A stretch of 49,751 bases of DNA from Terrimicrobiaceae bacterium. GTDB lineage: Bacteria; Verrucomicrobiota; Verrucomicrobiia; Chthoniobacterales; JAATET01. A program made the translations under genes and the position numbers. Location of the stretch: positions 1 through 49,751 of the forward strand of contig JAQTOP010000014.1 in NCBI GenBank assembly GCA_028713285.1, given 5' to 3'. Positions 7,588-42,716 of this stretch are shown piece after piece; within the stretch, counting starts at the first letter, position 1, and every line of letters starts with the position of its first letter. The notes under the pieces are model-generated. The model did no database searches and was not told the origin of the DNA. It saw only the letters and a program-made list of their open reading frames with translations.

Positions 7588-8115
7588 TCAGCCGCAGGCC
7601 GCCGGCGCCGCCTGCTGAATTTCCTCCGGGGTGAGATCGCGCACGTGCGTGGCCACGGACCACTGATGGCCAAACGGGTCCTCGATCCTGCCATAGCGGT
7701 CGCCCCAAAACATTTCATCGACGGGCAGCGTGAGCTTCGCCCCTGCCCGGACGGCGCGCTCGACGAATGCATCAGCGTCCTCGACTTGAAGGTGAATCGT
7801 CACCGGCGAGCCTTTGAGCGCCCTGGGTCCCAGCGCGCCCCATGCGGGAGATTCCTCCGCCAGCATGACCGTCGAATCCCCGATTCGGATGGAGGCATGA
7901 ATCAATTTTCCGTTCTGGCCGGGCAGCCGGAACATTTCGACGGCATCGAACGCCGCCTTGTAAAACTCGATGGCATCGGCGGCACCGTTGCAAATCAAGT
8001 GGGGCGTTACGGTGTGCATCCCCTCGGGAACGGCCTTTGCGGTCCGCCCGGTTGATTGCGTGGCCGAGCACCCTTCGATGTCCCGGTTCTCTGCGATGGC
8101 TGTGCTGGATTTCAT
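7588..8115 (-). CDS. VOC-family glyoxalase-like protein
   Basis: 175 residues. After a polar ~32-residue N-terminus it follows the PhnB/YkcA-like VOC pattern: VTPHLICNGAADAIEFYKAA, LIHASIRIGDSTVML, LQVEDADAFVERAVRAGA, and MFWGDRYGRIEDPFGHQWSV with the conserved closing PFGHxW. A second start, MHTVTPHLICNG, lies at codon 33 and gives the canonical length of about 140 residues; the longer form is kept because no stop intervenes. It sits between the SRPBCC and sigma factor genes, as usual for ECF42 clusters. Confidence 0.85.
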   Translation of the reverse strand: MKSSTAIAENRDIEGCSATQSTGRTAKAVPEGMHTVTPHLICNGAADAIEFYKAAFDAVEMFRLPGQNGKLIHASIRIGDSTVMLAEESPAWGALGPRALKGSPVTIHLQVEDADAFVERAVRAGAKLTLPVDEMFWGDRYGRIEDPFGHQWSVATHVRDLTPEEIQQAAPAACG

Positions 8116-8159
8116 GATGGTTGGTTCGGTTGGGTTTTTGTTTTCGGATGGTTGTCTGT

Positions 8160-9509
8160 TCAGTCTCTCGACGAACGGACGGGCTCATTCAGGACATCCC
8201 GTCCGTTTTTTTCGGTCCGGGTTTTTTCCTCGCAATCCCGCAGCCGGTTCGCGAGAAACACCCGCTCGGGCGTCAGCTCGCTGAGTCGGAGGGCATTGCG
8301 GAGGTGATCGGCGGCGACTTGAAAGTGCTCCAGTTCCGCCTCGAATTCGCCGAGGATCGCATGGAGCAGGTGATACGATCCCAACTGGCGGGCGTTCAGG
8401 ATCGCCTCTACGGACGCGATTCCCTTCGCCGGACCGTGGACTTTGGCGACGGCGACCGCACGGTTCAGCGCGACGATCGGCGAAGGGTCGAGCTCCGCAA
8501 GACGGTTATACAACGAGAGAATCTGCGGCCAATCGGTCGATGCATAATCGGATGCCGTGCAGTGGCAGGCGGCGATTCCGGCTTCGAGATGGTATCGGCT
8601 CAGGGCGTTGCCGACGGCCGACTGGCCGAGATGCAGGATGCCGCGCTCGATCATCGCGCGGCTCCACTGCGAACGGTCCTGCTCCTCGAGACGAAGAAAA
8701 TTTCCTTCGCCGTCCACGCGCGCGGGCAGCCGCGCTCCGTTCAACAACATGAGCGCAAGCAGCGCGTGCGTGGCGGGCCCATCTCCCACCGGATGCTCGA
8801 CGAGCAGGGTCGCCAGGCGAATGGCTTCCGCGCAGAGTTCCTCCCTCACCACATTCTCGCCGCTGGAGGCCTTGTATCCTTCGTTGAAAAGCAGGTAGAG
8901 GACCTGCAGGACGCCCTCCAGGCGGGTGGAGAGCGCCGCGCCGGACGGAATCTCGAAGGGAATGCCCTGCTCCTGGATGCGCTGCCGGGCGCGCGTGAGC
9001 CGCTTGGCGATGGCCGCTTCGGACGACAGGAATGCCTGCGCGATTTCGCCGTGACTGAATCCGCAAAGCGTCTTCAAAGCGAGCGCCACCTGGGCTTCCT
9101 GCGAAACTTCCGGGTGACAGCAAACGAACATCAGGCGCAGGCTGTCGTCCCGAATTTCGTCCTCCGAGAAAACCGGTTCGCCGGCGTCCATGTGTTCCAG
9201 GAAATTCGCGATCGCGGTTTCCTTGTTCCGAAAAGTGGTCGCGCGGCGCACATGGTCCAGCGCGAGGTTTCGCGACACGCGCATGATCCATGCGGGAGGA
9301 TTTTTCGGGACGCCGTAATACGGCCACGTTTGCAGGGCGCGCGACAGCGCTTCCTGCACCACGTCCTCTGCCAGTTCGAGATGCTCGACGCCGAAAATGC
9401 GGGTCAGCGTGGCGACCATCCGCCCCCATTCGTGCCGGAACAAATGCTCCACCACCCGGGGTGCGTCCCCGGGTGGCGCCATTTCGTGAGCGATTTCAGG
9501 CGGCGGCAT
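8160..9509 (-). CDS. ECF42-type RNA polymerase sigma factor with C-terminal extension
   Basis: 449 residues from the ATG at 9507-9509, which overlaps the DGPF gene by 14 nt; ATG 9480-9482 is an alternative. Region sigma-2 is visible as FRHEWGRMVATLTRIFG, LELAEDVVQEALSRALQTWP and NPPAWIMRVSRNLALDHVRR. Region sigma-4 is ALKTLCGFSHGEIAQAFLSS with LTRARQRI. The remaining ~230 residues form the helical, TPR-like extension of this subgroup (LYLLFNEGYKAS, ALLALMLLNGARLPAR, LSLYNRLAELDPSPIVALNR). No anti-sigma factor is encoded nearby. In ECF42 the extension itself is reported to be needed for activity, and the partner is a DGPF protein, as found here. Confidence 0.93.
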   Translation of the reverse strand: MPPPEIAHEMAPPGDAPRVVEHLFRHEWGRMVATLTRIFGVEHLELAEDVVQEALSRALQTWPYYGVPKNPPAWIMRVSRNLALDHVRRATTFRNKETAIANFLEHMDAGEPVFSEDEIRDDSLRLMFVCCHPEVSQEAQVALALKTLCGFSHGEIAQAFLSSEAAIAKRLTRARQRIQEQGIPFEIPSGAALSTRLEGVLQVLYLLFNEGYKASSGENVVREELCAEAIRLATLLVEHPVGDGPATHALLALMLLNGARLPARVDGEGNFLRLEEQDRSQWSRAMIERGILHLGQSAVGNALSRYHLEAGIAACHCTASDYASTDWPQILSLYNRLAELDPSPIVALNRAVAVAKVHGPAKGIASVEAILNARQLGSYHLLHAILGEFEAELEHFQVAADHLRNALRLSELTPERVFLANRLRDCEEKTRTEKNGRDVLNEPVRSSRD

Positions 9510-31933: not shown

Positions 31934-34900
31934 TCACGGAAAGACTCCCGGCTCGAAGAAGCCCAGGGAAACGTCGCGCACGGCTCCCGCGCCTGGACCG
32001 TTCCACCGCACCAGTTCAATTTCGTTCTCCGCGCCGAAACGCATGAACGGCGTGAGATTGAGGCTCCATCGCTCGCCGATCATGTGGTGATGGCGGCGCA
32101 CCAGTTTGCCATTGATGAGCACGCTCACGAGGGCGCGGTCGCCCTCCACCGTCAAAACGGCGTTCTGCCCGCGATACTTGGTGTCAACGAAAGCCGTGCG
32201 CCGCAGGAATTGTGTGTTGAAGTCCCCGGGCAACGAGATCGGAGTCTCGTAGCGGAGGCCGTCTTTGGAAGGCGCCCACTTGCCGGCGAGGTTCAGCTTC
32301 GCTTGCGCCTCCGGCTCGAACGACAGCCAGCACTGGCCGCGCAAACCGGCCAGTACGCCGTCGCTCTGCACCTCGACGGCGAGGGTGTGCTGACTGCCGG
32401 GTTTCAAAGCCGCCAGGCTCTCGGCGATGTAGCCGCTATTGTTCATCGGCTTGACTTCACGGCCGTCCAGCCAGACGCGCCCCTTGTCGATAAACGAGGA
32501 GCCATTCCAACTGGTCAGCCACAACGAGACACGGCCCTTTGTCCATTTTGCGGGCACCGTAAAAGTCTTGCGAAACACTCCATGGCCCTTGCCGCCCTCA
32601 TCCTTGACATTCCAGATCCCAATGGGACGCGAAGCCCAACCGCGGTCGTCGAATTGCGCCGCCAGGAGCCGCGTGGCATCGGCCGCGCCTTCGAGTGTTT
32701 GAAATTTCCAATCGTCGGTCAAATCGTCGGCGTGCCGCTGAAACGGCGCGGGCAGCGGCCTGGCGGCTGGCTTCGTCGTGCCGCGCCACCACTTGCGCTG
32801 CAAATCGAACCACGCCGCCGGCGCCCGCGTGATCCGTCCCCGCGGGGTAAGGAAGACCTGCGTTTCCAGAGGATCGAGGGTGATATTGTCGAGCCGCGCG
32901 CCGTCCGGCGAGGCCGTCACGGGAAACTCCTTGCCGCCTCGCATGTCGATGGCGAAGGAAGGATTTTTTCCCTTCTCGAGCACGATGGAGACCGTCTGAC
33001 TCGCATCGTGCGACCAGTTGAACAGGGTCCAGGTGTCATAGAGCCCGTTGTTGGTGACGGCCGGGCGCAACCAAACCTGTTCGTTCTCCGGGGATAGGTG
33101 GCCGGCTTCGGGCTTGACGCCGCGCCAGTCCAGGAGGGCCGACAGCATTTCGCGCAACTGGATGGTCTCCGGGGAATTGGCGCCCGGCTCCACGCGGTCG
33201 AAAATTTTCGCGCCGGTGAACTTCGCGCCCAGCTCGACGATGAAACCCTTGCCCAGAGGCCGCATTCCCGCCGCCACGCTCCCGTCGCTCCAGAGCAGAA
33301 GGTTCTGCGCTTCGGGTGCGATTTTTTCCAGATGCAGCCCGTTGGCGCGCACCCCGTTCCAGTCCGCGCCATAGATCTTCTGGCCGGAAGCGGGTTTGAG
33401 GATTCCAGTCTGGGCAACGTTGCCGTCGGGCGTGAGCTGATCAATTCGCGTCACTTTGTAACCTGTGAGACGTGCAATCGGCCAGGAATTGGGAATCTCC
33501 GGTGTGTGACGCCCGGTCTGCCCCAAGGTAATGAAGGTGCCCCCGGCACGCACCCACCGCTCGATTTCCTTGACCATGGCTTCGTCCATCATCGAGGTGT
33601 TCGAGTCGATGATGACGCGGTAGGCGTCCGCGTCGCCGCTGGCAAACGAGCTTTGCGACAGGCCATCATATGGAAAATGACCGCGCAGCAACGCACCGGC
33701 GTTCCAGTTCCAACGTCCGCCGCCGATATTCTGATTTGGAGCGGAACCCCACGGATAGCCGGTCAATTGCGCGATGCGATCCGAATACAAGCAGGCAACC
33801 TCGGCTTTCGCGTAATGACTCTGCCCCATGAGCGAGAGCTGCTTGCGGACGGTTTCATATTCCGCCTTGATCTCCGGGTCCCAAAGGATGCTGCCGAGGT
33901 GGATAAAGTAGTCGATGCTCTGGATGCCCTCGGTCTGCCACAAGCCGAGCTGTTTCTTGAAATCCTCGATGTCTCTGGCCGGTCCGCCGGGCTCGACAGA
34001 GAAGGGAAGGTCGGCGCCGCGCATCAGCGCCGGCAGCACGTCCGCCCAAAATGCGCCCATGTAACCGGTATTCCGAAACTCCCCGCCATAGGCCACGGCC
34101 AGCGACTTGATGCCGTCCGCGTAGGCGTCGGGAGCCATCAAGGTGATTCCCTGATTCGGAGCCACCTGCCGGATCATCTCCATCCCGCGCCTGACTGTCT
34201 GCAACCGCGACCAGGCGGTGAAGTCGATGAAATCCACCCACTGCGCGTTGAGACCCTCGCCAAGGTTGGGGTACTGCCTGGGCTCGACCGTCGAGAGGTA
34301 AGTCCGGTAAGCGATGTAACCCTGCGGCAGGCGGATCGCCAGCGTGTTCCTGCCGCCCTTGAGCACCGACGTCACCTCCATCGCGCTCCAGTGCGGCTCG
34401 GTGCGCACGATCCTGCTGCGCCCGACTTCCTTCCCGTTCAGGACGACGCGCACCTCCTCACGGGCCGCCAGATTCAGGTCCCACAAATAAAGCCAGACGT
34501 GTCCGTTCTTGGCGGACCAATTGACGGGCAGGTCGAAATGGCGCCGGAACACGGCGGGACGCTTCGCCAGAAACAGTTGCCGGTCGTGCCCCGCGCCCGG
34601 CACTTCGGGCCAGCTCGAATCATCGAAATCGGCTTTGAACCATTCCTCGGGCGCCAGCTTCGACGCGGGCGTATGCTCCTGGTTCTCCTCCGGTTCGCCC
34701 GGCTCCGTGAGCTCCTCATAACCCACGCGCCACGCTCCTCCCACGTCGAGTGCCCGCGGCCCCCACCCGGCAAAGGATGCGATTTCCGGCACATGCACGT
34801 CGTTCCACGCTCCGAGGCTGACACCCCAGCGTTTGGCGACCGCCGCCAGCGTTCCGTATTTCCCCTCGAGGTATCGCCGATAGTCGGCGTCGGCGACCGG

Positions 34901-36373
34901 GCCGTATTCGAGAAAAATATCCTGCGCCCCGTGCTTCAACTCGCCGTGAGGCTCCAATACCGAAGTCACGTTCGGAGCAGCGGTATAGCGTCGAACCGCC
35001 TCCTGCAACTGCCCCAGTCTGTCGTCCTCCCCGGTGGTCGCGTTCCAGGATAAAACACCCTGTCCTCCCAGATAGGGGCTCATCAGGGAATGGAAGTTCC
35101 CGGTGAATCCGGGCATTTTCATCTGCGTCTGCTCGCGATAGCGATTGAGAAACCAGGACGGCTCGCCGCCGGCATTCGCTCCCAGGTGGATGTCCACCGG
35201 CAGACTGCGCTTTCTCGCTTCCTCGGCCACCCAGCCGCCCCAGCCATAGTTCATCATCCCCTCCGCGCTGTCTGTGGCGAGAGGACTCGTGTGCAACAAA
35301 ATCCCCGCCCGATCGTGCTCCCTGGCCCAGTCAAATTCGTGGACGAAATCGTAGGTGGCCTCGGTTTCACCCTTCGGCATCTGCCACGGCCAGTAATAAT
35401 GGCGGAAACAAAACCTGTCCCAGCGGTCCAGCCACATCGGCACCTCCACCTGCGCCGTGGTCGCCCCGGCGGGCTTGACCTGCTGGATGAGAGCCTGCAA
35501 TTCCCCGTCGCTCTTTGCCGCGAGGATGGTCACCTCGCTGGCGTCGCAATAGGCGGCGATGACGCCCTGCCCTCTTACCGCAAAGACGGTCGACGACGGA
35601 ACGGTCCCCGGCTTTGGGGTTACTCCGGGCAGGACTTGCAGATCGGAGAGATACTTGGCATGGAGAAGCTTTGCCCTGGCTTCGTCTTCTGAAAAGACTT
35701 GCAGCACCGAGCCGGCAGCCTCCTCCCAAAAAAGACCCGAAACCGTGCCATATCCCCGCAGGGTGATCGGCGCGAAGGTTTCTGTTGGCATTGTCGCAAG
35801 CGCATGCGCTCTCACGGGAATGCGCGCCGCGGCCGCCGCCGGCTCGACTCCCGAGGGCGCGGCCGCCTCCAGCGCGCTCAGCGCCTGCTGGGCCAGATCG
35901 GTCGCCTGGATCGGAAGCCGCTGCGTCGCTCCCGCGTGCCTGGCCGTCACGCTCACCGCATCCAGTCCGACAACTTCCACCGGGCTTCCCGCAGGCAGCT
36001 TCACCGAGCCGGCCACCTTTCCGCCGATGACGATCGGGAAGTCGGCGGCTTCGATCAGGACCACTTCCTTGGGCCAGCTTTCCCGATGTTCCAAAAGCCA
36101 GGCCAAAGGCTCAGGCCTCGGGGTCGGCGTCGGCGCAGGCGTCGGCGGGGGAGTGGGCGCCGCCGTTGGCGTGGGAATGGGCGCCTGGGCGGGCGTCGGT
36201 GACGGGATCGGCGTGGGGGTCGGAGTCGGCGTGGCGGTCCATTCACGAATCATCTTCCCGGCGGAATCCGCAATCCGCTTCGCCGCAGCCCGCGGCGACT
36301 CGTTATTGAAAAACATGACGGCGCCAAAAAGGACCGCCAGCAGGATGAGGAGAAAAAGAAAGGCGCGCTTCAT
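31934..36373 (-). CDS. Giant membrane-anchored glycosidase-like protein (beta-galactosidase-type architecture)
   Basis: 1479 residues from the ATG at 36371-36373 (MKRAFLFLLILLAVLFGAVM). Order: N-terminal membrane anchor; Pro/Thr-rich linker (residues ~45-90, TPTPTPTPIPSP); SH3-like strand region (VAGSVKLPAGSPVEVVGLD); TIM-barrel part from ~300 (FCFRHYYWPWQMPKGETE, FDWAREHDRAG, MSPYLGGQGVLSWNATTG, EPHGELKHGAQDIFLEYGP); galactose-binding-like sandwich (DDSSWPEVPGAG, AVFRRHFDLP); GATase-like beta-galactosidase segment (YRVIIDSNTSMMDEAMV, ERWVRAGGTFITLG); and a second jellyroll (LAAQFDDRGWASRPIGIWN). It lies before the porin gene. Polysaccharide-active, substrate unknown. A decayed paralogue lies at 41.5-42.7 kb. 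Confidence 0.7.
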   Translation of the reverse strand: MKRAFLFLLILLAVLFGAVMFFNNESPRAAAKRIADSAGKMIREWTATPTPTPTPIPSPTPAQAPIPTPTAAPTPPPTPAPTPTPRPEPLAWLLEHRESWPKEVVLIEAADFPIVIGGKVAGSVKLPAGSPVEVVGLDAVSVTARHAGATQRLPIQATDLAQQALSALEAAAPSGVEPAAAAARIPVRAHALATMPTETFAPITLRGYGTVSGLFWEEAAGSVLQVFSEDEARAKLLHAKYLSDLQVLPGVTPKPGTVPSSTVFAVRGQGVIAAYCDASEVTILAAKSDGELQALIQQVKPAGATTAQVEVPMWLDRWDRFCFRHYYWPWQMPKGETEATYDFVHEFDWAREHDRAGILLHTSPLATDSAEGMMNYGWGGWVAEEARKRSLPVDIHLGANAGGEPSWFLNRYREQTQMKMPGFTGNFHSLMSPYLGGQGVLSWNATTGEDDRLGQLQEAVRRYTAAPNVTSVLEPHGELKHGAQDIFLEYGPVADADYRRYLEGKYGTLAAVAKRWGVSLGAWNDVHVPEIASFAGWGPRALDVGGAWRVGYEELTEPGEPEENQEHTPASKLAPEEWFKADFDDSSWPEVPGAGHDRQLFLAKRPAVFRRHFDLPVNWSAKNGHVWLYLWDLNLAAREEVRVVLNGKEVGRSRIVRTEPHWSAMEVTSVLKGGRNTLAIRLPQGYIAYRTYLSTVEPRQYPNLGEGLNAQWVDFIDFTAWSRLQTVRRGMEMIRQVAPNQGITLMAPDAYADGIKSLAVAYGGEFRNTGYMGAFWADVLPALMRGADLPFSVEPGGPARDIEDFKKQLGLWQTEGIQSIDYFIHLGSILWDPEIKAEYETVRKQLSLMGQSHYAKAEVACLYSDRIAQLTGYPWGSAPNQNIGGGRWNWNAGALLRGHFPYDGLSQSSFASGDADAYRVIIDSNTSMMDEAMVKEIERWVRAGGTFITLGQTGRHTPEIPNSWPIARLTGYKVTRIDQLTPDGNVAQTGILKPASGQKIYGADWNGVRANGLHLEKIAPEAQNLLLWSDGSVAAGMRPLGKGFIVELGAKFTGAKIFDRVEPGANSPETIQLREMLSALLDWRGVKPEAGHLSPENEQVWLRPAVTNNGLYDTWTLFNWSHDASQTVSIVLEKGKNPSFAIDMRGGKEFPVTASPDGARLDNITLDPLETQVFLTPRGRITRAPAAWFDLQRKWWRGTTKPAARPLPAPFQRHADDLTDDWKFQTLEGAADATRLLAAQFDDRGWASRPIGIWNVKDEGGKGHGVFRKTFTVPAKWTKGRVSLWLTSWNGSSFIDKGRVWLDGREVKPMNNSGYIAESLAALKPGSQHTLAVEVQSDGVLAGLRGQCWLSFEPEAQAKLNLAGKWAPSKDGLRYETPISLPGDFNTQFLRRTAFVDTKYRGQNAVLTVEGDRALVSVLINGKLVRRHHHMIGERWSLNLTPFMRFGAENEIELVRWNGPGAGAVRDVSLGFFEPGVFP

Positions 36374-36446
36374 AAGGGATCGAGCGAAAAGAATCAACCG
36401 CGGATGAGACGAATGTCAGGAATAAAGCAGTCCGTCAAAGAGTGCG

Positions 36447-36486: not shown

Positions 36487-36510
36487 CAACCCCGGCCGAA
36501 GCCGGGGTTG
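36487..36510 (-). terminator. Terminator of PEP-CTERM gene 1
   Basis: Perfect 10-bp stem CAACCCCGGC (36487-36496) / GCCGGGGTTG (36501-36510) with the stable loop TTCG on the minus strand, followed there by CTTTTGTCG. It separates the PEP-CTERM gene from the glycosidase-like gene, which must then have its own promoter; a minus-strand TTGACG occurs near 36435. Confidence 0.8.
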
Positions 36511-36541: not shown

Positions 36542-37612
36542 TCACCCGAGCATTGCATGCCGCCTGCGCCTGCGAAGCAGGATCAAGCCCAGCAATCCCG
36601 CAGTGGCCAGGGCATAAGCGCCCGGCTCGGGGACTACGGCGAGACCGCCGAAACTGGTTGGAGTGGTGCCCGAATAGAGACGCATCGTGTCGTAGTCGGC
36701 ATTCACCCCTGGTCCATGAGCAAATCCCGCCTGATCCCAGACGCCATTCTTGAATGCAGTTGTCGTTGCCTCAACGATGCTCGCGTTGAGGTTAAATGAC
36801 GCCGCATACTGCAAGTCAGCGTTGGATGTGGTATCAATCGCGAGAAAATCCTGCCTCGCAAACACTTTCGCGGTAATCAAACCATTGGCATCCGTGCTGA
36901 ATGTAAAGCCAAGGTGATAACTACCCGGATTGCTGAAAAAGTCGGAATTGCCGTCCATGAAGGCGGATCCGGTTGTGCCGCTGGCCGACCCGTTGCCAAA
37001 CGTGAGTTTTGTATAGTTGGTCATCGCCCCGGTGCCGGTGTCCAATTGAAGCCGGACGGCGCCAAAACCCAGACCGCTAAAAATCAGCCGCATCCCGCTG
37101 GTACCCACACGGTTGTCCAAATTTGTAATCCCAGCAAGCCAATCGGCTGATCGGCCGTCGGGAACGGTATCCTTCACATCAAGCCGGGTGAATTCATCAA
37201 ATCCGCCGTTCAGATTGACGAAGGTGTTGGGACCATTGACGATGTCGGTGCCGGCAAGACTGGCAAAGGAGCTGGCCGCGGACGTGGGTGTATATTCAGC
37301 GAAAAAGCCGCTGCCGCCACCGGCGCCGGTGGAAGGCCAAAGGGTGTTCAGATAATTGCCGCTGCCCGTGGTAAGAGGGGGCGGCCCCTGAATACTGGAC
37401 ACAAAATTGGGACCGTTCCCGAAGATAGCGCCTGTGCCACCGATCGCGACGATGTCGCTTGCGCCACCGGTTCCTCCGCCGGTGCCGTTATAATCGGCCT
37501 CGAAGACGATGGCTGCGTTTGCGCCCGCTGCCGATAGCAGGAAGGATGTGACAATGGCCGCAAGGCCGGACGGAATCCGCCGGTTATGGCGGTGGGTAGG
37601 GGATGTTTTCAT
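36542..37612 (-). CDS. PEP-CTERM protein 1
   Basis: 356 residues from the ATG at 37610-37612. Signal peptide SGLAAIVTSFLLSAAGANAA; mature start IVFEADYNGTGGGTGGASD. The C-terminus is a textbook PEP-CTERM sorting signal: VPEPGAYALATAGLLGLILL followed by RRRRRHAMLG. In the family this is cut by exosortase at the outer face of the inner membrane during export. It is ~60% similar by eye to the next two PEP-CTERM proteins (shared: NTFVNLNGGFDEFTRLD, YHLGFTFSTDANGLITAKVF, ARQDFLAIDTTSNADLQYAA, NADYDTMRLYSG). Possible LamG-like sandwich; ligand unknown. Its leader holds a 15-bp tandem repeat. Confidence 0.9.
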   Translation of the reverse strand: MKTSPTHRHNRRIPSGLAAIVTSFLLSAAGANAAIVFEADYNGTGGGTGGASDIVAIGGTGAIFGNGPNFVSSIQGPPPLTTGSGNYLNTLWPSTGAGGGSGFFAEYTPTSAASSFASLAGTDIVNGPNTFVNLNGGFDEFTRLDVKDTVPDGRSADWLAGITNLDNRVGTSGMRLIFSGLGFGAVRLQLDTGTGAMTNYTKLTFGNGSASGTTGSAFMDGNSDFFSNPGSYHLGFTFSTDANGLITAKVFARQDFLAIDTTSNADLQYAASFNLNASIVEATTTAFKNGVWDQAGFAHGPGVNADYDTMRLYSGTTPTSFGGLAVVPEPGAYALATAGLLGLILLRRRRRHAMLG

Positions 37613-37614
37613 TG

Positions 37615-37659
37615 GTTTGTTGTTCTGTGTTTGGTTGTTCTGTGGGTTGTTGTTCTGTG
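37615..37659. repeat. Three 15-bp tandem repeats before PEP-CTERM gene 1
   Basis: Units GTTTGTTGTTCTGTG, TTTGGTTGTTCTGTG and GGTTGTTGTTCTGTG (37615-37659), directly upstream of the ATG. The unit length is a multiple of three and the frame is open, reading NPQNN-type residues. Copy-number change could alter leader length without a frameshift. Absent from the other two PEP-CTERM leaders. Confidence 0.75.
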
Positions 37660-37675
37660 GGTTTGCTAATATCTT

Positions 37676-37790
37676 CAGTGACAATCGGTTCAGGAAAATT
37701 GCTTGAACGGCCGCTTGGGATGGGAGGAGAAGGGCATTGGCCCCTGGACGATGGAAGGAGACCAGACCCGCGGTTGCGGCTCACGGCCCG
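37676..37790 (-). pseudogene. 3' remnant of a duplicated GntR regulator gene
   Basis: This ~115-bp stretch is a gapless copy of the final part of the GntR gene and its stop (38902-39016). Shared strings include GGTTCAGGAAAATTGCT and GGAAGGAG/AGAAGGAG. It is the last piece of a regulator that once preceded PEP-CTERM gene 1 and now forms the 3' end of PEP-CTERM gene 2. The leader beyond it is also shared (CCTGAACCGA...CTGAAGA). Confidence 0.8.
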
Positions 37791-38871
37791 CTTGGCTCCG
37801 CCTCCAAAGCGCGGTCAATCCCAGGAATCCCGCGGCTGAGGCGGCCAGAGCAAGAATACCCGGCTCAGGGACTGCGGCAAGCGCGTCAAAACTCGCCGGA
37901 GCACTGTCATAGAGACGCATCGTGTCGTAGTCGGCACTCGCCCCTGCACCCGCCGCGCTCACGAATCCGGCCTGATGCCAGGCGCCCGAATCGATCGGAT
38001 TTGGACCGATGGCGGTCGCATCGAGGTTAAAGGTGGCCGCATACTGCAAGTCGGCGTCGGATGTGGTATCAATCGCGCCAAAATCCTGCCTCGCAAATAC
38101 TTTCGCGGTAATCAGGCCATTGGCATCCGTGCTGAATGTCAAGCCCAAATGGTAATTATTCGGATCGTTGAAATAATCGGCCGTGCCGTCCATGTAGGCG
38201 ACATTGCCCGAGGCAAAACTGACAGAACCGTTGCCGGCGCTAAGTTTTGTATAGTTGGTAATGCCGGCGGCAGCGCCGGTATCCAACTGAAGGCGAATGG
38301 CGCCATAGCCCAGGCCACTAAAGGTCAGCGCCATCCCGTTGCTGCCGGATATCGTGGTTACAGTGTAAAATCCACTAAGCCAGGTGGCGGAACGTCCGAC
38401 GTCGCCAGGCCCGCCCGTGGTTCCCACATCCTTGATGTCGAGCCGGGCAAACTCATCGAAGCCGCCGTTCAGATTGACGAAGGTATTGGGACCGTTGACG
38501 ATGTTGGCACCGACGAAACTCGCGAGGGAACTGGCGGCGGACGCGGGGGTATAGTTGGCGAAAAAGCCGCTGCCGCCGGCGGCGCCGGTGGAAGGCCAAA
38601 GGGAGTTCAGATAGTTGCCACTTCCCGCATCAAGAGGGTTCGCCGATTGGTCGCTGGCGACAAAATTGGGGTTGTTGCCGGTGATCGTACCCGTGCCGCC
38701 GAGGGCGACGACATCGCTTGCACCACCGGAGCCTGAGTCGGAGCCGTTATAGTCGGCCTCGAAGACGAGGGCCGCGTTTGCGCCAGCCGCAGAGAGCAGG
38801 AGGGATGCGGAAAGGGCCCCAAGGCCGGACGAAAGGCGTCGGATAGGGGATTGGCCAGGGGGTGTCTTCAT
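37690..38871 (-). CDS. PEP-CTERM protein 2 with GntR-derived C-terminal tail
   Basis: 393 residues. Signal peptide GALSASLLLSAAGANAA and a mature domain like proteins 1 and 3 (NTFVNLNGGFDEFARLDIKD, YHLGLTFSTDANGLITAKVF). It has VPEPGILALAASAAGFLGLT and a short ALWRRSQ. Instead of ending there it carries ~30 more residues, including RVWSPSIVQGPMPFSS and PFKQFS. These match the last residues of the neighbouring GntR regulator (QVWPPSVIPGPLPFSS, SFEQFS), and the DNA (37676-37790) aligns without gaps to the end of that gene (38902-39016). The sorting signal is thus no longer at the very C-terminus, so normal processing may be impaired. Confidence 0.85.
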   Translation of the reverse strand: MKTPPGQSPIRRLSSGLGALSASLLLSAAGANAALVFEADYNGSDSGSGGASDVVALGGTGTITGNNPNFVASDQSANPLDAGSGNYLNSLWPSTGAAGGSGFFANYTPASAASSLASFVGANIVNGPNTFVNLNGGFDEFARLDIKDVGTTGGPGDVGRSATWLSGFYTVTTISGSNGMALTFSGLGYGAIRLQLDTGAAAGITNYTKLSAGNGSVSFASGNVAYMDGTADYFNDPNNYHLGLTFSTDANGLITAKVFARQDFGAIDTTSDADLQYAATFNLDATAIGPNPIDSGAWHQAGFVSAAGAGASADYDTMRLYDSAPASFDALAAVPEPGILALAASAAGFLGLTALWRRSQAGREPQPRVWSPSIVQGPMPFSSHPKRPFKQFS

Positions 38872-38918
38872 GATGCTACCTGTTTCTGGGGATTGTCGAT
38901 TCTTCAGCGAAAGTCGGT

Positions 38919-40025
38919 TCAGGAAAATTGCTCAAACGATAGCCCGTGGTCGGAGGAAAACGGCAGGGGACCGGGGATGACAGAAGGAGGCCATACCTGC
39001 GGCCGTGCCTCCCGGTCCTCGAACTGGGAGTTCACGATTTCGATCAATGCATCCGCGAAGCGGCCGATTTCCGTCACCAAAAACGTGGCCGGCAAAGGGC
39101 AGAGATAGGGCAGCAGGTCGTTGGCGTGCAAAACCAGCTTCAACTCCCCGGGCACGCACACGTGACGCTCGAGAATCGCCATGATTACGCCGGAAGCGGC
39201 AACGTCGGGATAGATCAGCAGCCCCTCCGGATGCCGTTGCTGAGCCCAGAGGGCATGGAATTGCTCATATCCATAGTGAGCGAGGCGACGCTGAGCCCGC
39301 GTGGGAACGCGCATCCATTCATTGCGGGTTTCCAAGCCGAGTTCTCCGGCCGCTTCGACGATCGCCCGGTGGAAATCCAGGTCCTGCGATTGAGACGTCC
39401 CAATATGGCTGATGATCCCGACCGACCGGCACCCCTGCAGGCGAAGCTGCTCCAAGCCGGTCCGCATGATCTGCCCAGGATCGCTGCAATATCCATTTTT
39501 CAGGGAACGATCCATCGTCAACATCGCGGAGGGAATCCGTGCGTTTAGTATCCAGTCCGGATCACCCTCGCGGATCAAAGGTGCGATCAGCGATTGGATT
39601 TCGCGCCTCTCGATCGCCCTCTTCAATGAAGGCAGCATCACCTTCTGCTCGTTTTCCGGGCGATCGTCCGACCAGATCAGACTCTTCACGCCCTGCACGG
39701 CCAGCTTCCGTTGCAATTCCAGTCCCACCGCCCGGTAAAAGTCCGAGTCGTCCCTCCAAAAAAGTCCGTTGAGATAAATCCCGGCACAGGTGTGGACAGG
39801 GGCCACACCGCGCACGTAGGTCGCCCTCTTGTCCCTGCGGTCCAGCAACCCTTCCGAGTGGAGGCGGGCCATCGCCATATGCACCGTCCGGACGCTCGTT
39901 CCCATCTGTTTGGCGAGCGCGCCCGTGGATGGCATCCTGGACCCGGGAGCGAATACCCCCTCGACAATCTGCGTGCGAACGAAATCTTCGACCTGCTGGT
40001 GCAGAGGCTGCTGTTTGATGAGCAT
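38919..40025 (-). CDS. GntR-family regulator with LacI-type ligand-binding domain
   Basis: 368 residues from ATG 40023-40025 (GTG 40026 is adjacent). Residues 5-72 are a GntR winged helix: PLHQQVEDFVRTQIVEGVFA, PGSRMPSTGALAKQMGTSVR, TVHMAMARLHSEGLL. From ~80 a periplasmic-binding-protein-like sensor follows, with AGIYLNGLFWRDDSDFYRAV, SVGIISHIGTSQSQDLDFHR, GLLIYPDVAASGVIMAILER and a closing TEIGRFADALIEIVN. Such regulators sense sugars. It lies 47 bp before PEP-CTERM gene 2 and is the only intact one of three cassette copies. Probably controls this locus. Confidence 0.88.
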   Translation of the reverse strand: MLIKQQPLHQQVEDFVRTQIVEGVFAPGSRMPSTGALAKQMGTSVRTVHMAMARLHSEGLLDRRDKRATYVRGVAPVHTCAGIYLNGLFWRDDSDFYRAVGLELQRKLAVQGVKSLIWSDDRPENEQKVMLPSLKRAIERREIQSLIAPLIREGDPDWILNARIPSAMLTMDRSLKNGYCSDPGQIMRTGLEQLRLQGCRSVGIISHIGTSQSQDLDFHRAIVEAAGELGLETRNEWMRVPTRAQRRLAHYGYEQFHALWAQQRHPEGLLIYPDVAASGVIMAILERHVCVPGELKLVLHANDLLPYLCPLPATFLVTEIGRFADALIEIVNSQFEDREARPQVWPPSVIPGPLPFSSDHGLSFEQFS

Positions 40026-40095
40026 CACTTTATTCTTAGTAAATAGCCGATACGAAATAGATTCAAGAGCGTCAATACTTTTCTTACAAATTTGC
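40026..40095 (-). promoter_or_regulatory. Promoter of the GntR gene, duplicated at 41343-41400
   Basis: On the minus strand TTGAC, AATCTATTT, CTATTTAC, AGAAT and AAG stand in the same order and spacing as in the remnant upstream of PEP-CTERM gene 3. TTGACG can serve as -35; the -10 is unclear. The conservation itself suggests these blocks matter (promoter or autoregulatory site). Confidence 0.5.
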
Positions 40096-40164
40096 GGTCA
40101 CCTATCATCCGATCTCTGTAGCAGCCGATGAAATCTCACAAAAGAATCCCAGCTCGAAGAGAAA

Positions 40165-41259
40165 TCACGCGAGGTGACGCGCGCCCTGCACGTCGGCACC
40201 GCTGGATGGCACGCGGTCCGCTCGCCTCCGCCTCCGGAGCGCGATCAATCCCAGCAGTCCCGCTGCTGAGGCAGCTAGGGCAAGAATGCCCGGCTCCGGG
40301 ACTGCACTAAGCGCGGAAAACGTGCCCGGATCGCTGCTATACAAGCGCAGGGAGTCGAAATCCGCGTCAAGGGCGGTGCCTGCTGCATAGAATCCGGAAA
40401 TGCCCGTCTGGCCCAGGACACCCGACGCAGTGGTGACCGGTGCGGGATTTCCTGCGAATGTCGTTGCATCGATATTAAAGGTCGCTACGGAAAAGGCGTC
40501 GGTTGCTGTATTGATCTCCCCGGTCCCCGTCGTCCCGAACAGCTTCATCGTGATCAGTCCACTGGCATCCGTATTGAAAGTGAAGCCCATGTGATACGTT
40601 TCGCCATCATTTTGCAGGAAGCCGGCGCCAAAGCTGTCAAGAACCGCCCACCCGGGGTTGACCAGCGAGCCCTGGCCGCTCACCAAATTGAAATTGCTGA
40701 TTGCAGGGGATTGGGTTTGAACCTGGAGCCGGAAACTGGGCCCTATGCCGCCAAAGATAATTCCCAATGGACTGCCGGCGCTGGGAAACGCAACAGGACC
40801 ATTGGACCATTGGTTGTCGCCCGGAACCGCCGTGTTGCGCCGGACAAAATAATCGAATCCGCCTTGCAATACGGCAAAGGTATTCGCGCCGTTCACCACC
40901 GTGCCGCCATACAAGGCGTTCAAGGTATTGGCCGTGCCCGTTTGCGTAAAGAAAGCGGACGAATTAAAAAAGGCCGTGCCATCCGTTGTGACGTGGAGGT
41001 AGTCGCCTCCCCCCGCCGCCAGGGGGTTCGTTCCAATGACTGTGCTGGTGAGCCGGGGATCCGCGGTGTTGAGCGAACCTGTGCCGCCGATCGAAACCAT
41101 ATCGGTCGGACCACCTGTTCCTCCGCTGCTGCCATTGAAATCGGCCTCGAAGACGATGGTCGCATTTGCGCTTCCGACGCAGAGCAGGAAAGAGGCGGCC
41201 AGGGCGGCAAACCTCGACGGAATCCGCCGGGCATGGAATTGTCGAGAGAGTTTCTTCAT
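40165..41259 (-). CDS. PEP-CTERM protein 3
   Basis: 364 residues from the ATG at 41257-41259 (MKKLSRQFHARRIPSRFAAL). Signal peptide ALAASFLLCVGSANA; mature start TIVFEADFNGSSGGTGGPTD. The sorting signal VPEPGILALAASAAGLLGLI with ALRRRRRADR is almost identical to that of protein 2, but ends in a 15-residue polar tail. The internal sequence is the most divergent of the three (SFRLQVQTQSPAISNFNLVS), although the YHMGFTFNTDASGLITMKLF block is kept. Upstream lies the decayed 5' end of a second GntR gene. Confidence 0.88.
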   Translation of the reverse strand: MKKLSRQFHARRIPSRFAALAASFLLCVGSANATIVFEADFNGSSGGTGGPTDMVSIGGTGSLNTADPRLTSTVIGTNPLAAGGGDYLHVTTDGTAFFNSSAFFTQTGTANTLNALYGGTVVNGANTFAVLQGGFDYFVRRNTAVPGDNQWSNGPVAFPSAGSPLGIIFGGIGPSFRLQVQTQSPAISNFNLVSGQGSLVNPGWAVLDSFGAGFLQNDGETYHMGFTFNTDASGLITMKLFGTTGTGEINTATDAFSVATFNIDATTFAGNPAPVTTASGVLGQTGISGFYAAGTALDADFDSLRLYSSDPGTFSALSAVPEPGILALAASAAGLLGLIALRRRRRADRVPSSGADVQGARHLA

Positions 41260-41309
41260 GGCTTTCGAGGGAATTTGGGGAGGGTTATTTACCGTTGCTG
41301 AATTTGCAG

Positions 41310-41400
41310 CGCGGGGGAGGCTGTTGTTCGACAAGCGTCGCTTGATTCTGGGTAAATAGGCGGTCGGAAATAGATTGCGATTTGTCAACAACTTTTTGGC
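41310..41400 (-). pseudogene. 5' remnant of a second GntR regulator gene
   Basis: On the minus strand this region repeats the GntR promoter and first codons: TTGAC..., AATCTATTT, G-CTATTTAC, AGAAT-AAG, then ACGCTTGTCGAACAACAGCC, against ATGCTCATCAAACAGCAGCC in the intact gene (14 of 20 positions). The start codon ATG has become ACG. Homology fades after CAGCCTC, so the body of the gene is gone and the sequence passes straight into the PEP-CTERM gene 3 leader. Confidence 0.8.
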
Positions 41401-41459
41401 GAACCCTGCCGCCGACGAGTCCCTTTCCTCTGTAAGGCTGGCGAAAATTCACGCCGGGG

Positions 41460-42716
41460 GGCGGGGCGGAATTGTGGCACAAGCTGTCGCACCGGGCCGG
41501 CACCGGCGAGGGTCTCGTAACCGACTCGCCATGCCCCAGGTGCCGGGGCGACGTCCAGCGTCTGCGGCCCCCAACCGGCAAAGGACGCCAGTTCCGGCAC
41601 GCGGACATCGCTCGACATCTTCACGTTTGCGCCCCAGCGCGCCGCCAGGTGTGCCGTATTTGCTCTTCAGCAAGCGCCGGAAATTGGCATCGGCCTCCGG
41701 GCCATACTCCAGGAAGGTGTCCTGCTCGCCGTGCTTCATTTCGGCATGCGGCTCCATGTAGGAGACAACATTGGAATCGGCGCTAAAACGGCGGATCGAA
41801 TCCTGATACATCCCCATCTCGGCATCCTGGCCGCCGCCGGCATTCCACGACAAGACACCCTGCCCTCCCAGATAAGGGCTCATCAGATTGTGAAAGTTGC
41901 CGGTGAATCCGGGCATCTTGAGCTGGTTCTGCCCGCGATAGCGGTTGAGGATTCATGCCGGTTCGTAGCCGGCCGTTGGCACCGGGGTTCACCGCCACCG
42001 GCAACTGGCGCTTTTTGGCCTCGGCCAAAGCCCAGTCCAGATAGCCGTAGTTATCATCCCGTCGGCGCCGTCGGTGTTGAGAGCGCCATAAAAAACCGCG
42101 ATCCCCGCCCGCTGCTGCTCTTTGGCCCAGTCGAACTCCTTGATAAAATCATAGGTGGTCTCGGTCTCTCCCTTGGCATCTGCCACGGCCAGTAGTAATG
42201 GCGGAAGCAGAATTTGTCCCAACGGTCGGAGATACATTGGCACCTCTACCTGCGCCGTGGTCGCACCGGCGGGCTTGACCTTCTCGACGAGGGGTTGCAA
42301 ATCCCCGCCGCTCATCGCTGCGAGAATGGTCACCTTGTTCGCGGAGCAATAGGCGACAATGGCTCCCTGCCCTTCGGCCTCGTAGATCGTCGACTTCGCG
42401 CCATCGCCCGACTTGATTGCCACCCCGGCAGCCCGCTCAAATCGCAAACGTATTTTGCCTGCAGCAGCTTTGCCTTGTTCGCATCTTCACAGGTGATCTC
42501 CAGCACCGAACCGGCCGCCTCCCGGCGGAAGGAACCCGAAACCACTCCGTAACCGCGCAATGCTGCGTCGGGAAGCGATTCAGCCTCCCCAGCAGGAACG
42601 TCCGCACTCGATTTCGCTCCGGCTTGCGCCGCGACTGCCGCCCGGGCGGATCCAGAACAAGCCCAGAGGCAGCCGATCAGTCCGGCCAATGCCAGCGCCG
42701 GGTATTTTCTTATCAT
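41460..42716 (-). pseudogene. Decayed, truncated paralogue of the giant glycosidase-like gene
   Basis: Starts with its own signal peptide (MIRKYPALALAGLIGCLWAC) and lacks the Pro/Thr linker. It then follows the intact protein piecewise in different frames: LRGYGVVSGSFRREAAGSVL, then IVAYCSANKVTILAAMSGGD and KPAGATTAQVEVPMY, then (shifted) SDRWDKFCFRHYYWPWQMP, then GETETTYDFIKEFDWAKEQQ, then YGYLDWALAEAKKRQLPVAV, then MPGFTGNFHNLMSPYLGGQG, then VPELASFAGWGPQTLD and WRVGYETLAG. I count at least five frame changes. It stops where the intact protein has ~900 residues to go. Not translatable as one protein. Confidence 0.85.

What the first reader, a model, noticed from the sequence alone, without database searches (positions are those of the whole stretch)
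36542..41400. Triplicated GntR-regulator + PEP-CTERM cassette in which only one regulator survives
Three PEP-CTERM genes stand in a row. Before gene 3 lies only the promoter and first ~10 codons of a GntR gene (41310-41400, start codon ATG changed to ACG). Before gene 2 lies the intact GntR gene (38919-40025). Before gene 1 lies only the last ~115 bp of a GntR gene (37676-37790). So one unit, regulator then surface protein, was copied twice and two regulators were deleted from opposite ends. The surviving regulator may now control all copies through conserved leader blocks. I know of no description of a sugar-sensing GntR paired with and co-duplicated with a PEP-CTERM protein.
Basis: seen in the sequence. 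Interest (0 to 1): 0.8.

Follow-up and report, generated by a model that had tools for sequence, protein, structure and literature searches.

The report
Sugar-type regulator with tandem PEP-CTERM array
A Verrucomicrobiota bacterium carries one intact sugar-sensor-type repressor gene among three tandem copies of a surface-protein gene; the two broken repressor pieces are mainly scars of how the array was copied, but related bacteria repeatedly put such repressors right in front of surface-protein genes, a pairing I found no description of.

Summary
Three PEP-CTERM genes lie in tandem on the minus strand with one intact GntR-type regulator. Both regulator fragments score far above every one of 1000 shuffles.

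The history is only partly as proposed. The "tail" fragment before gene 1 is not isolated. It belongs to a 1.23-kb direct repeat [last ~100 bp of GntR + leader + PEP-CTERM] whose two copies abut with 6 bp between them. One tandem duplication with a breakpoint inside GntR explains it without copying and then deleting a regulator. The same junction sits in a second array on contig C85. The remnant is in frame with gene 2, so that protein carries a 31-residue GntR-derived extension after its sorting signal. The "head" fragment (promoter plus about 7-10 codons, ATG to ACG) before gene 3 does need a regulator deletion or a partial copy. A decayed glycosidase copy shows the duplication was wider.

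The regulator is AraR-like in architecture. In 40 related neighbourhoods a PEP-CTERM gene lies directly downstream in 6 (expected 0.3), scattered over the regulator tree. The pairing is recurrent, but control of all copies is not shown: gene 1 and 2 leaders do not carry the promoter block.

The parts
38919..40025 (-). intact GntR-type regulator: N-terminal winged helix PF00392 plus C-terminal LacI/CcpA-type sensor domain PF13377 (AraR-like architecture)
   Evidence: the only full copy in the genome
40026..40090 (-). promoter/leader block of the regulator (shared TTGAC at 40071-40075, AATCTATTTC, CTATTTACnnAGAAT)
   Evidence: block found only here and before PEP gene 3
41317..41391 (-). copy of the regulator's promoter block and first ~7-10 codons (start ATG now ACG), upstream of PEP gene 3
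40165..41259 (-). PEP-CTERM gene 3 (start ATG at 41259)
   Evidence: PF07589 above cut-off; 46% aa identity to genes 1 and 2, dN/dS about 0.4
37690..38871 (-). PEP-CTERM gene 2; its last 31 codons are the GntR tail, fused in frame after the sorting signal
37672..37790 (-). GntR 3' tail remnant (ends with the GntR stop region and the start of the PEP leader); doubles as the 3' end of gene 2
36542..37612 (-). PEP-CTERM gene 1 (ATG at 37612)
   Evidence: PF07589 above cut-off; 67% aa identity to gene 2, dN/dS 0.37
36564..39018 (-). head-to-tail direct repeat [GntR tail + leader + PEP]: copies 37796-39018 and 36564-37789, 6 bp apart
   Evidence: 71% over 1263 columns
36487..36510 (-). terminator-like hairpin (CAACCCCGGC-TTCG-GCCGGGGTTG then CTTTTG) after PEP gene 1, before the glycosidase
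   Evidence: consensus match only
31934..36397 (-). 1487-aa GH2/GH42-like glycosidase-type protein downstream of the array
41449..42716 (-). decayed, 3'-truncated copy of the glycosidase gene (frameshifts and stops), upstream of the head fragment

Best explanation
This is a locally regulated carbohydrate/surface-protein locus in a Verrucomicrobiota bacterium of the order that holds Spartobacteria LR76. An AraR-like repressor (GntR DNA-binding domain plus LacI-type sensor domain) heads a short operon, GntR - PEP gene 2 - PEP gene 1, that ends in a terminator; a glycosidase-type gene and an OprB-type porin follow. The array grew by tandem duplication. At some stage a duplication started inside the 3' end of GntR, at a GGACCG microhomology with the end of a PEP gene, and placed [GntR tail + leader + PEP] behind an existing PEP gene. 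That left the tail fragment and fused it in frame to gene 2. A separate copy of the regulator's promoter region, with the regulator body lost, now stands in front of PEP gene 3. Inferred function: without its ligand (probably a sugar or oligosaccharide) the regulator represses its own operon and, through the copied promoter block, gene 3; the ligand relieves repression and exosortase-sorted surface proteins are made together with the nearby glycosidase. Shown: anatomy, duplication units, purifying selection on the PEP genes, domain architecture, recurrent GntR/PEP-CTERM adjacency. Inferred: operator, ligand, repression, and the order of events.
For: Abutting 1.23-kb repeat copies whose 5' edge lies in GntR. 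The same junction in a second array, C85:454-595, 80% to the window remnant. No internal GntR fragment in the genome. GGACCG at the PEP gene 3 end, in GntR and at the C85 junction. Purifying selection: dN/dS 0.37 for PEP1/PEP2, 0.40-0.43 for comparisons with PEP3. GntR gap to PEP2 is 47 nt and PEP2 gap to PEP1 is 77 nt, with a strong terminator-like hairpin only after PEP1. AraR/YvoA-like N-terminus and CcpA/PurR-like C-terminus. OprB porin, CBM6 and GH2/GH42-like neighbours. PEP-CTERM gene directly downstream of related regulators in 6 of 40 loci, expected 0.29, P about 7e-7. Two exosortase genes in the genome.
Against: A full-unit copy followed by a deletion would leave the same final anatomy, so the tandem-duplication history rests on parsimony. 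C85 shares the junction, yet its PEP body is more diverged from gene 1 (dS about 1.6) than gene 2 is (dS 0.62), so conversion or more than one round of amplification must be added. No palindromic operator was found. The promoter block is no better conserved (78%) than the dead regulator codons beside it (17 of 22 identical, 77%, read), so selection on it is not shown. The pattern scan found no sigma-70-type promoter there.
Confidence: 0.62

Rival explanations
1. One reading: a complete [GntR-PEP] cassette was copied twice, and two regulators were then deleted from opposite ends.
For: Fragments from both ends of GntR lie in front of two of the three PEP genes. The head fragment does require loss of a regulator body or a partial copy. 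Three paralogous PEP genes stand in a row.
Against: It needs an extra duplication and a deletion for the tail side. The repeat copies abut. The second array on C85 also contains only tail + PEP. No internal GntR fragments were found in the genome.
Confidence: 0.25
2. Purely neutral scar: the array is an ordinary product of tandem duplication, the regulator acts on something else (for example the glycosidase), and its link to the PEP genes has no regulatory meaning.
For: No operator found. The promoter block is no better conserved than dead codons next to it. Other PEP paralogues of the family in the genome (contigs C85, C48, C41, C12) have no such regulator gene near them. Related regulators also sit before pseudopilins and glycosidase-type genes.
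Against: PEP-CTERM genes directly follow related regulators far more often than expected (6 vs 0.3), repeatedly and on different branches. Operon-like spacing and no strong terminator between GntR and genes 2 and 1.
Confidence: 0.25
3. The GntR tail on PEP gene 2 is a functional C-terminal extension that alters sorting of that protein (retained, secreted or not cut by exosortase).
For: In-frame fusion of 31 residues; dN/dS of the tail about 0.3 between GntR and gene 2 (31 codons). The PEP-CTERM signal is by definition a C-terminal domain (PMC1569441).
Against: The homologous C85 copy has a stop after about 7 residues, so the extension is not kept there. Because one of the two compared tails is the constrained GntR end itself, the low dN/dS does not show constraint on the gene 2 side.
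Confidence: 0.1

Closest known systems
AraR of Bacillus subtilis (GntR-family arabinose repressor; PMC4218819)
   Same: Domain order and classes: N-terminus matches GntR-family chains including AraR, C-terminus matches CcpA/PurR-type sensors. Genes for sugar use nearby.
   Different: No ara-box-like palindrome found. The partner gene is a PEP-CTERM surface protein, not an arabinose catabolic gene. The ligand is unknown.
PEP-CTERM/exosortase sorting system (Haft et al. 2006, PMC1569441)
   Same: N-terminal hydrophobic leader, PEP motif, transmembrane helix and basic cluster at the C-terminus (genes 1 and 3). Two exosortases in the genome. Large paralogous families, as reported for Verrucomicrobium spinosum.
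   Different: The described regulators of PEP-CTERM genes are PrsK/PrsR with sigma-54 in Proteobacteria; here a GntR-type regulator adjoins the genes. Gene 2 has a 31-residue extension beyond the sorting signal.
Ordinary tandem gene arrays with duplication breakpoints inside a neighbouring gene
   Same: Abutting direct repeats, partial neighbour gene at the junction, short microhomology.
   Different: The partial neighbour is the likely regulator of the array and is fused in frame to the preceding copy.
Pseudopilin (pulG-like) families amplified with polysaccharide genes in Verrucomicrobiota (67 homologues in Verruconatronum alginivorum, PMC13274419)
   Same: In relatives the same regulator family stands directly before pseudopilin genes in about six loci, so PEP-CTERM proteins occupy the same slot.
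   Different: Different sorting machinery; no pseudopilin in the window array.

Membership tests
PEP-CTERM proteins | PEP motif, hydrophobic helix and basic cluster at the extreme C-terminus (genes 1 and 3) | tested here: met
   PF07589 21.0 and 24.0 bits, cut-off 20.7; genome scan 25.6 and 27.5 bits.
PEP-CTERM proteins | the same, for gene 2 | tested here: inconclusive
   Motif present (18.2 bits by hmmscan, below cut-off; 23.3 in the genome scan), but followed by 31 GntR-derived residues, so not at the extreme C-terminus.
PEP-CTERM proteins | exosortase in the same genome | tested here: met
   PF09721 at C79 and C20, E=2e-44 and 5e-41.
PEP-CTERM proteins | N-terminal signal peptide | not tested
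   Hydrophobic N-terminal stretch followed by an A-x-A-like site seen in the alignment; no signal-peptide program run.
AraR-type regulators | GntR winged helix N-terminal and LacI-type periplasmic-binding-like domain C-terminal | tested here: met
   PF00392 and PF13377 both over cut-off; PDB profile matches.
AraR-type regulators | palindromic operator in its own and target promoters | tested here: inconclusive
   A promoter block is shared with gene 3 only; no clear palindrome and no further sites.
AraR-type regulators | sugar effector that releases DNA | not testable with these tools
   Needs binding assays.
Tandem duplication with breakpoint in GntR | abutting direct repeats whose edges are the breakpoints | tested here: met
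   36564-37789 and 37796-39018, 6 bp between copies; GGACCG microhomology. Does not exclude copy-then-delete.
Recurrent regulator/PEP-CTERM pair | regulator homologues followed on the same strand by a PEP-CTERM gene more often than chance | tested here: met
   6 of 40 loci, expected 0.29, P about 7e-7. 6 of the 12 PEP-CTERM genes in the 427 kb of neighbourhoods read lie there.

The most novel reading that the evidence does not exclude
Verrucomicrobiota use a loose family of AraR-like, ligand-sensing local repressors to switch single exosortase-sorted surface proteins (and, in the same slot, pseudopilins) on and off with a particular glycan. The pairing is assembled anew many times, and here one repressor has come to serve an amplified array of three surface proteins through copied promoter and operon structure.
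Probability: 0.35. Interest if true: 0.6.

Novelty: new variant of a known kind. Interest (0 to 1): 0.42.

Why it matters
The 2006 description of the PEP-CTERM system named regulators only for Proteobacteria (PrsK/PrsR with sigma-54) and stated that further regulators remained to be discovered, inside and outside the Proteobacteria (PMC1569441). Verrucomicrobiota can carry dozens of these proteins per genome. A recurrent GntR/LacI-type neighbour gives a concrete, testable candidate and suggests that surface-protein display is tied to a sugar signal. The array is also a clear example of how tandem duplication can leave a regulator fragment that looks like a lost regulator but is only the duplication edge. 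The literature search covers open-access papers only, so absence of a description is not proof.

Tried and rejected
Structure of the PEP protein: AlphaFold with the six paralogues gave mean pLDDT 48 and pTM 0.56. The PDB fold search had no match under E 0.001, so no function is drawn from it. PDB sequence search with PEP gene 1: nothing. Search for further copies of the promoter block in window and genome: only the two known sites (the genome DNA search did not even recover the gene 3 copy, so its sensitivity is limited). Alternative that the GntR C-terminus was itself borrowed from the array spacer: disfavoured, because the tail aligns with the end of the sensor domain of other regulators, though the last ~12 residues are unique to this gene. 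Alternative that the pairing is one inherited gene pair: rejected, the PEP-partner label needs 7 changes for 7 rows, at least 6 forced by supported branches. Misassembly: unlikely, because the copies differ by about 29%. Literature searches for GntR with PEP-CTERM, PEP-CTERM in Verrucomicrobiota, and tandem PEP-CTERM clusters: nothing relevant. The scan of genome contigs gave only LR76 and one more genome.

Full report
Observation. The region 36542-41400 holds, on the minus strand and in order of transcription, PEP-CTERM gene 3 (41259-40165), an intact GntR-type gene (40025-38919), PEP gene 2 (38871-37690) and PEP gene 1 (37612-36542). Both regulator fragments are real. The tail fragment (37672-37789) and the GntR 3' end (38901-39018) align over 118 nt without gaps at 73%, score 79 against a best of 28 in 1000 dinucleotide shuffles. 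The head fragment (41317-41376) and the GntR 5' end (40004-40063) align over 60 nt at 78%, score 55 against a best of 26. The ATG to ACG change is correct, and the similarity extends in register to a shared TTGAC.

A self-comparison of the whole window shows that the tail match is only the edge of a longer one: 36564-37789 matches 37796-39018 at 71% over 1263 columns. The two copies stand head to tail with 6 bp between them. Each copy is [last ~100 bp of GntR, leader, PEP gene]. This is the signature of a tandem duplication whose upstream breakpoint lay inside GntR, near GGACCG, a hexamer also present at the 3' end of PEP gene 3 and at the C85 junction. The fragment before gene 1 then needs no second regulator and no deletion. 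A copy-then-delete history would leave the same anatomy, so this is an argument from economy, not a proof.

The tail is also the end of gene 2. Gene 2 reads through the junction in frame and ends ...REPQPRVWSPSIVQGPMPFSSHPKRPFKQFS, where GntR ends ...REARPQVWPPSVIPGPLPFSSDHGLSFEQFS. The sorting signal of gene 2 is therefore followed by 31 foreign residues. Its motif scores 18.2 bits by hmmscan, under the 20.7 cut-off, and 23.3 in the genome scan.

A second array. On contig C85 of the same genome a truncated PEP gene is followed by the same tail fragment (454-595, 80% identical to the window fragment) and then another PEP gene. There the fragment contains a stop and indels. The junction was most likely made once and inherited by both arrays. 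The C85 PEP body is more diverged from gene 1 (dS 1.64) than gene 2 is (dS 0.62), and 65 nt of the C85 sorting-signal region are identical to gene 1. Repeated amplification or gene conversion is the likely reason; I could not resolve the order.

The head fragment and the wider duplication. The fragment before gene 3 carries the regulator's promoter block and first codons, then passes into the gene 3 leader. Here a regulator body was lost or never copied. Upstream of it lies a decayed copy of the downstream 1487-aa GH2/GH42-like gene (about 41551-42559 versus 34743-35760, 71.5%; stops and frameshifts). The duplicated tract was thus wider than a regulator-surface protein pair.

Selection. dN/dS is 0.37 for genes 1 and 2, and 0.40-0.43 for each against gene 3, so all three PEP genes appear to be maintained. 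The promoter block (78%) is not better conserved than the neighbouring dead codons (17 of 22 identical), so selection on the block is not demonstrated.

The regulator. It joins a GntR winged helix to a LacI-type sensor domain. In the PDB its relatives are YvoA- and AraR-type N-termini and CcpA/PurR-type C-termini. It is the only full copy in the genome, and no homologue beyond weak DNA-binding-domain matches was found in the three other genomes of the genus. The PEP family and the glycosidase are also largely private to this species. One flanking gene, an OprB-type porin, is conserved in the genus but in a different setting. The neighbourhood (OprB porin, GH2/GH42-like protein, CBM6 protein) points to carbohydrate use.

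Relatives. Of 286 genomes of the class, 20 hold a homologue at E 1e-20 or better. One of them, G047, is Spartobacteria LR76, identified by equal contig length. I read 40 neighbourhoods. In 6 (L124, L129, L130, L137, L142, L147) a PEP-CTERM gene directly follows the regulator on the same strand; 0.29 are expected from the number of such genes per genome, P about 7e-7. Half of all PEP-CTERM genes in those 427 kb sit in that slot. In about six others the slot holds a pseudopilin-type protein, and in further ones a glycosidase-type protein. On a tree of the regulators the PEP-CTERM partner is scattered: 7 changes for 7 rows. The pairing has therefore arisen repeatedly. The loci were found by homology to the window regulator and its nearest kin, and some genomes contribute several, so the P value is approximate.

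Mechanism. Most likely GntR, gene 2 and gene 1 form one operon (gaps of 47 and 77 nt, a strong terminator-like hairpin only after gene 1), repressed by GntR at its own promoter, with gene 3 driven from the copied block. The ligand is probably a sugar. Operator, ligand and repression are inferred.

Verdict. The history is better read as tandem duplication with a breakpoint in the regulator on one side and loss of the regulator body on the other. The regulator/PEP-CTERM pairing is real, recurrent and, in the open literature searched, undescribed. This is a new variant of known kinds, of moderate interest.

Noticed in passing
L078:395-460 (G000 contig C85) and window 36562-36627: A 65-nt stretch coding for the PEP-CTERM sorting signal is 100% identical between two paralogues that are otherwise only about 70-84% identical at DNA level; looks like gene conversion.
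   Followed up: partly
L079:6330-7578 and 7904-9146 (G000 contig C48): Two further PEP paralogues in tandem, 95% identical, a recent duplication in the same family without any regulator fragment nearby.
   Followed up: partly
window 41449-42716: Decayed N-terminal part of the GH2/GH42-like gene with frameshifts and stops upstream of the array; another full relative (62%) on contig C76 without PEP genes.
   Followed up: yes
L118, L121, L122, L131, L133, L139: Homologues of the regulator stand directly before pseudopilin-type (N_methyl/DUF1559/T2SSG-like) genes in other Verrucomicrobiota, the same slot that PEP-CTERM genes take.
   Followed up: partly
window 37608-37659: Leader of PEP gene 1 contains a short 15-nt tandem repeat absent from the leader of gene 2.
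   Followed up: no
L058:3758-7286 (G033): A PEP-CTERM gene divergent from the regulator with 283 nt between the open frames, a different layout of the same pairing.
   Followed up: no
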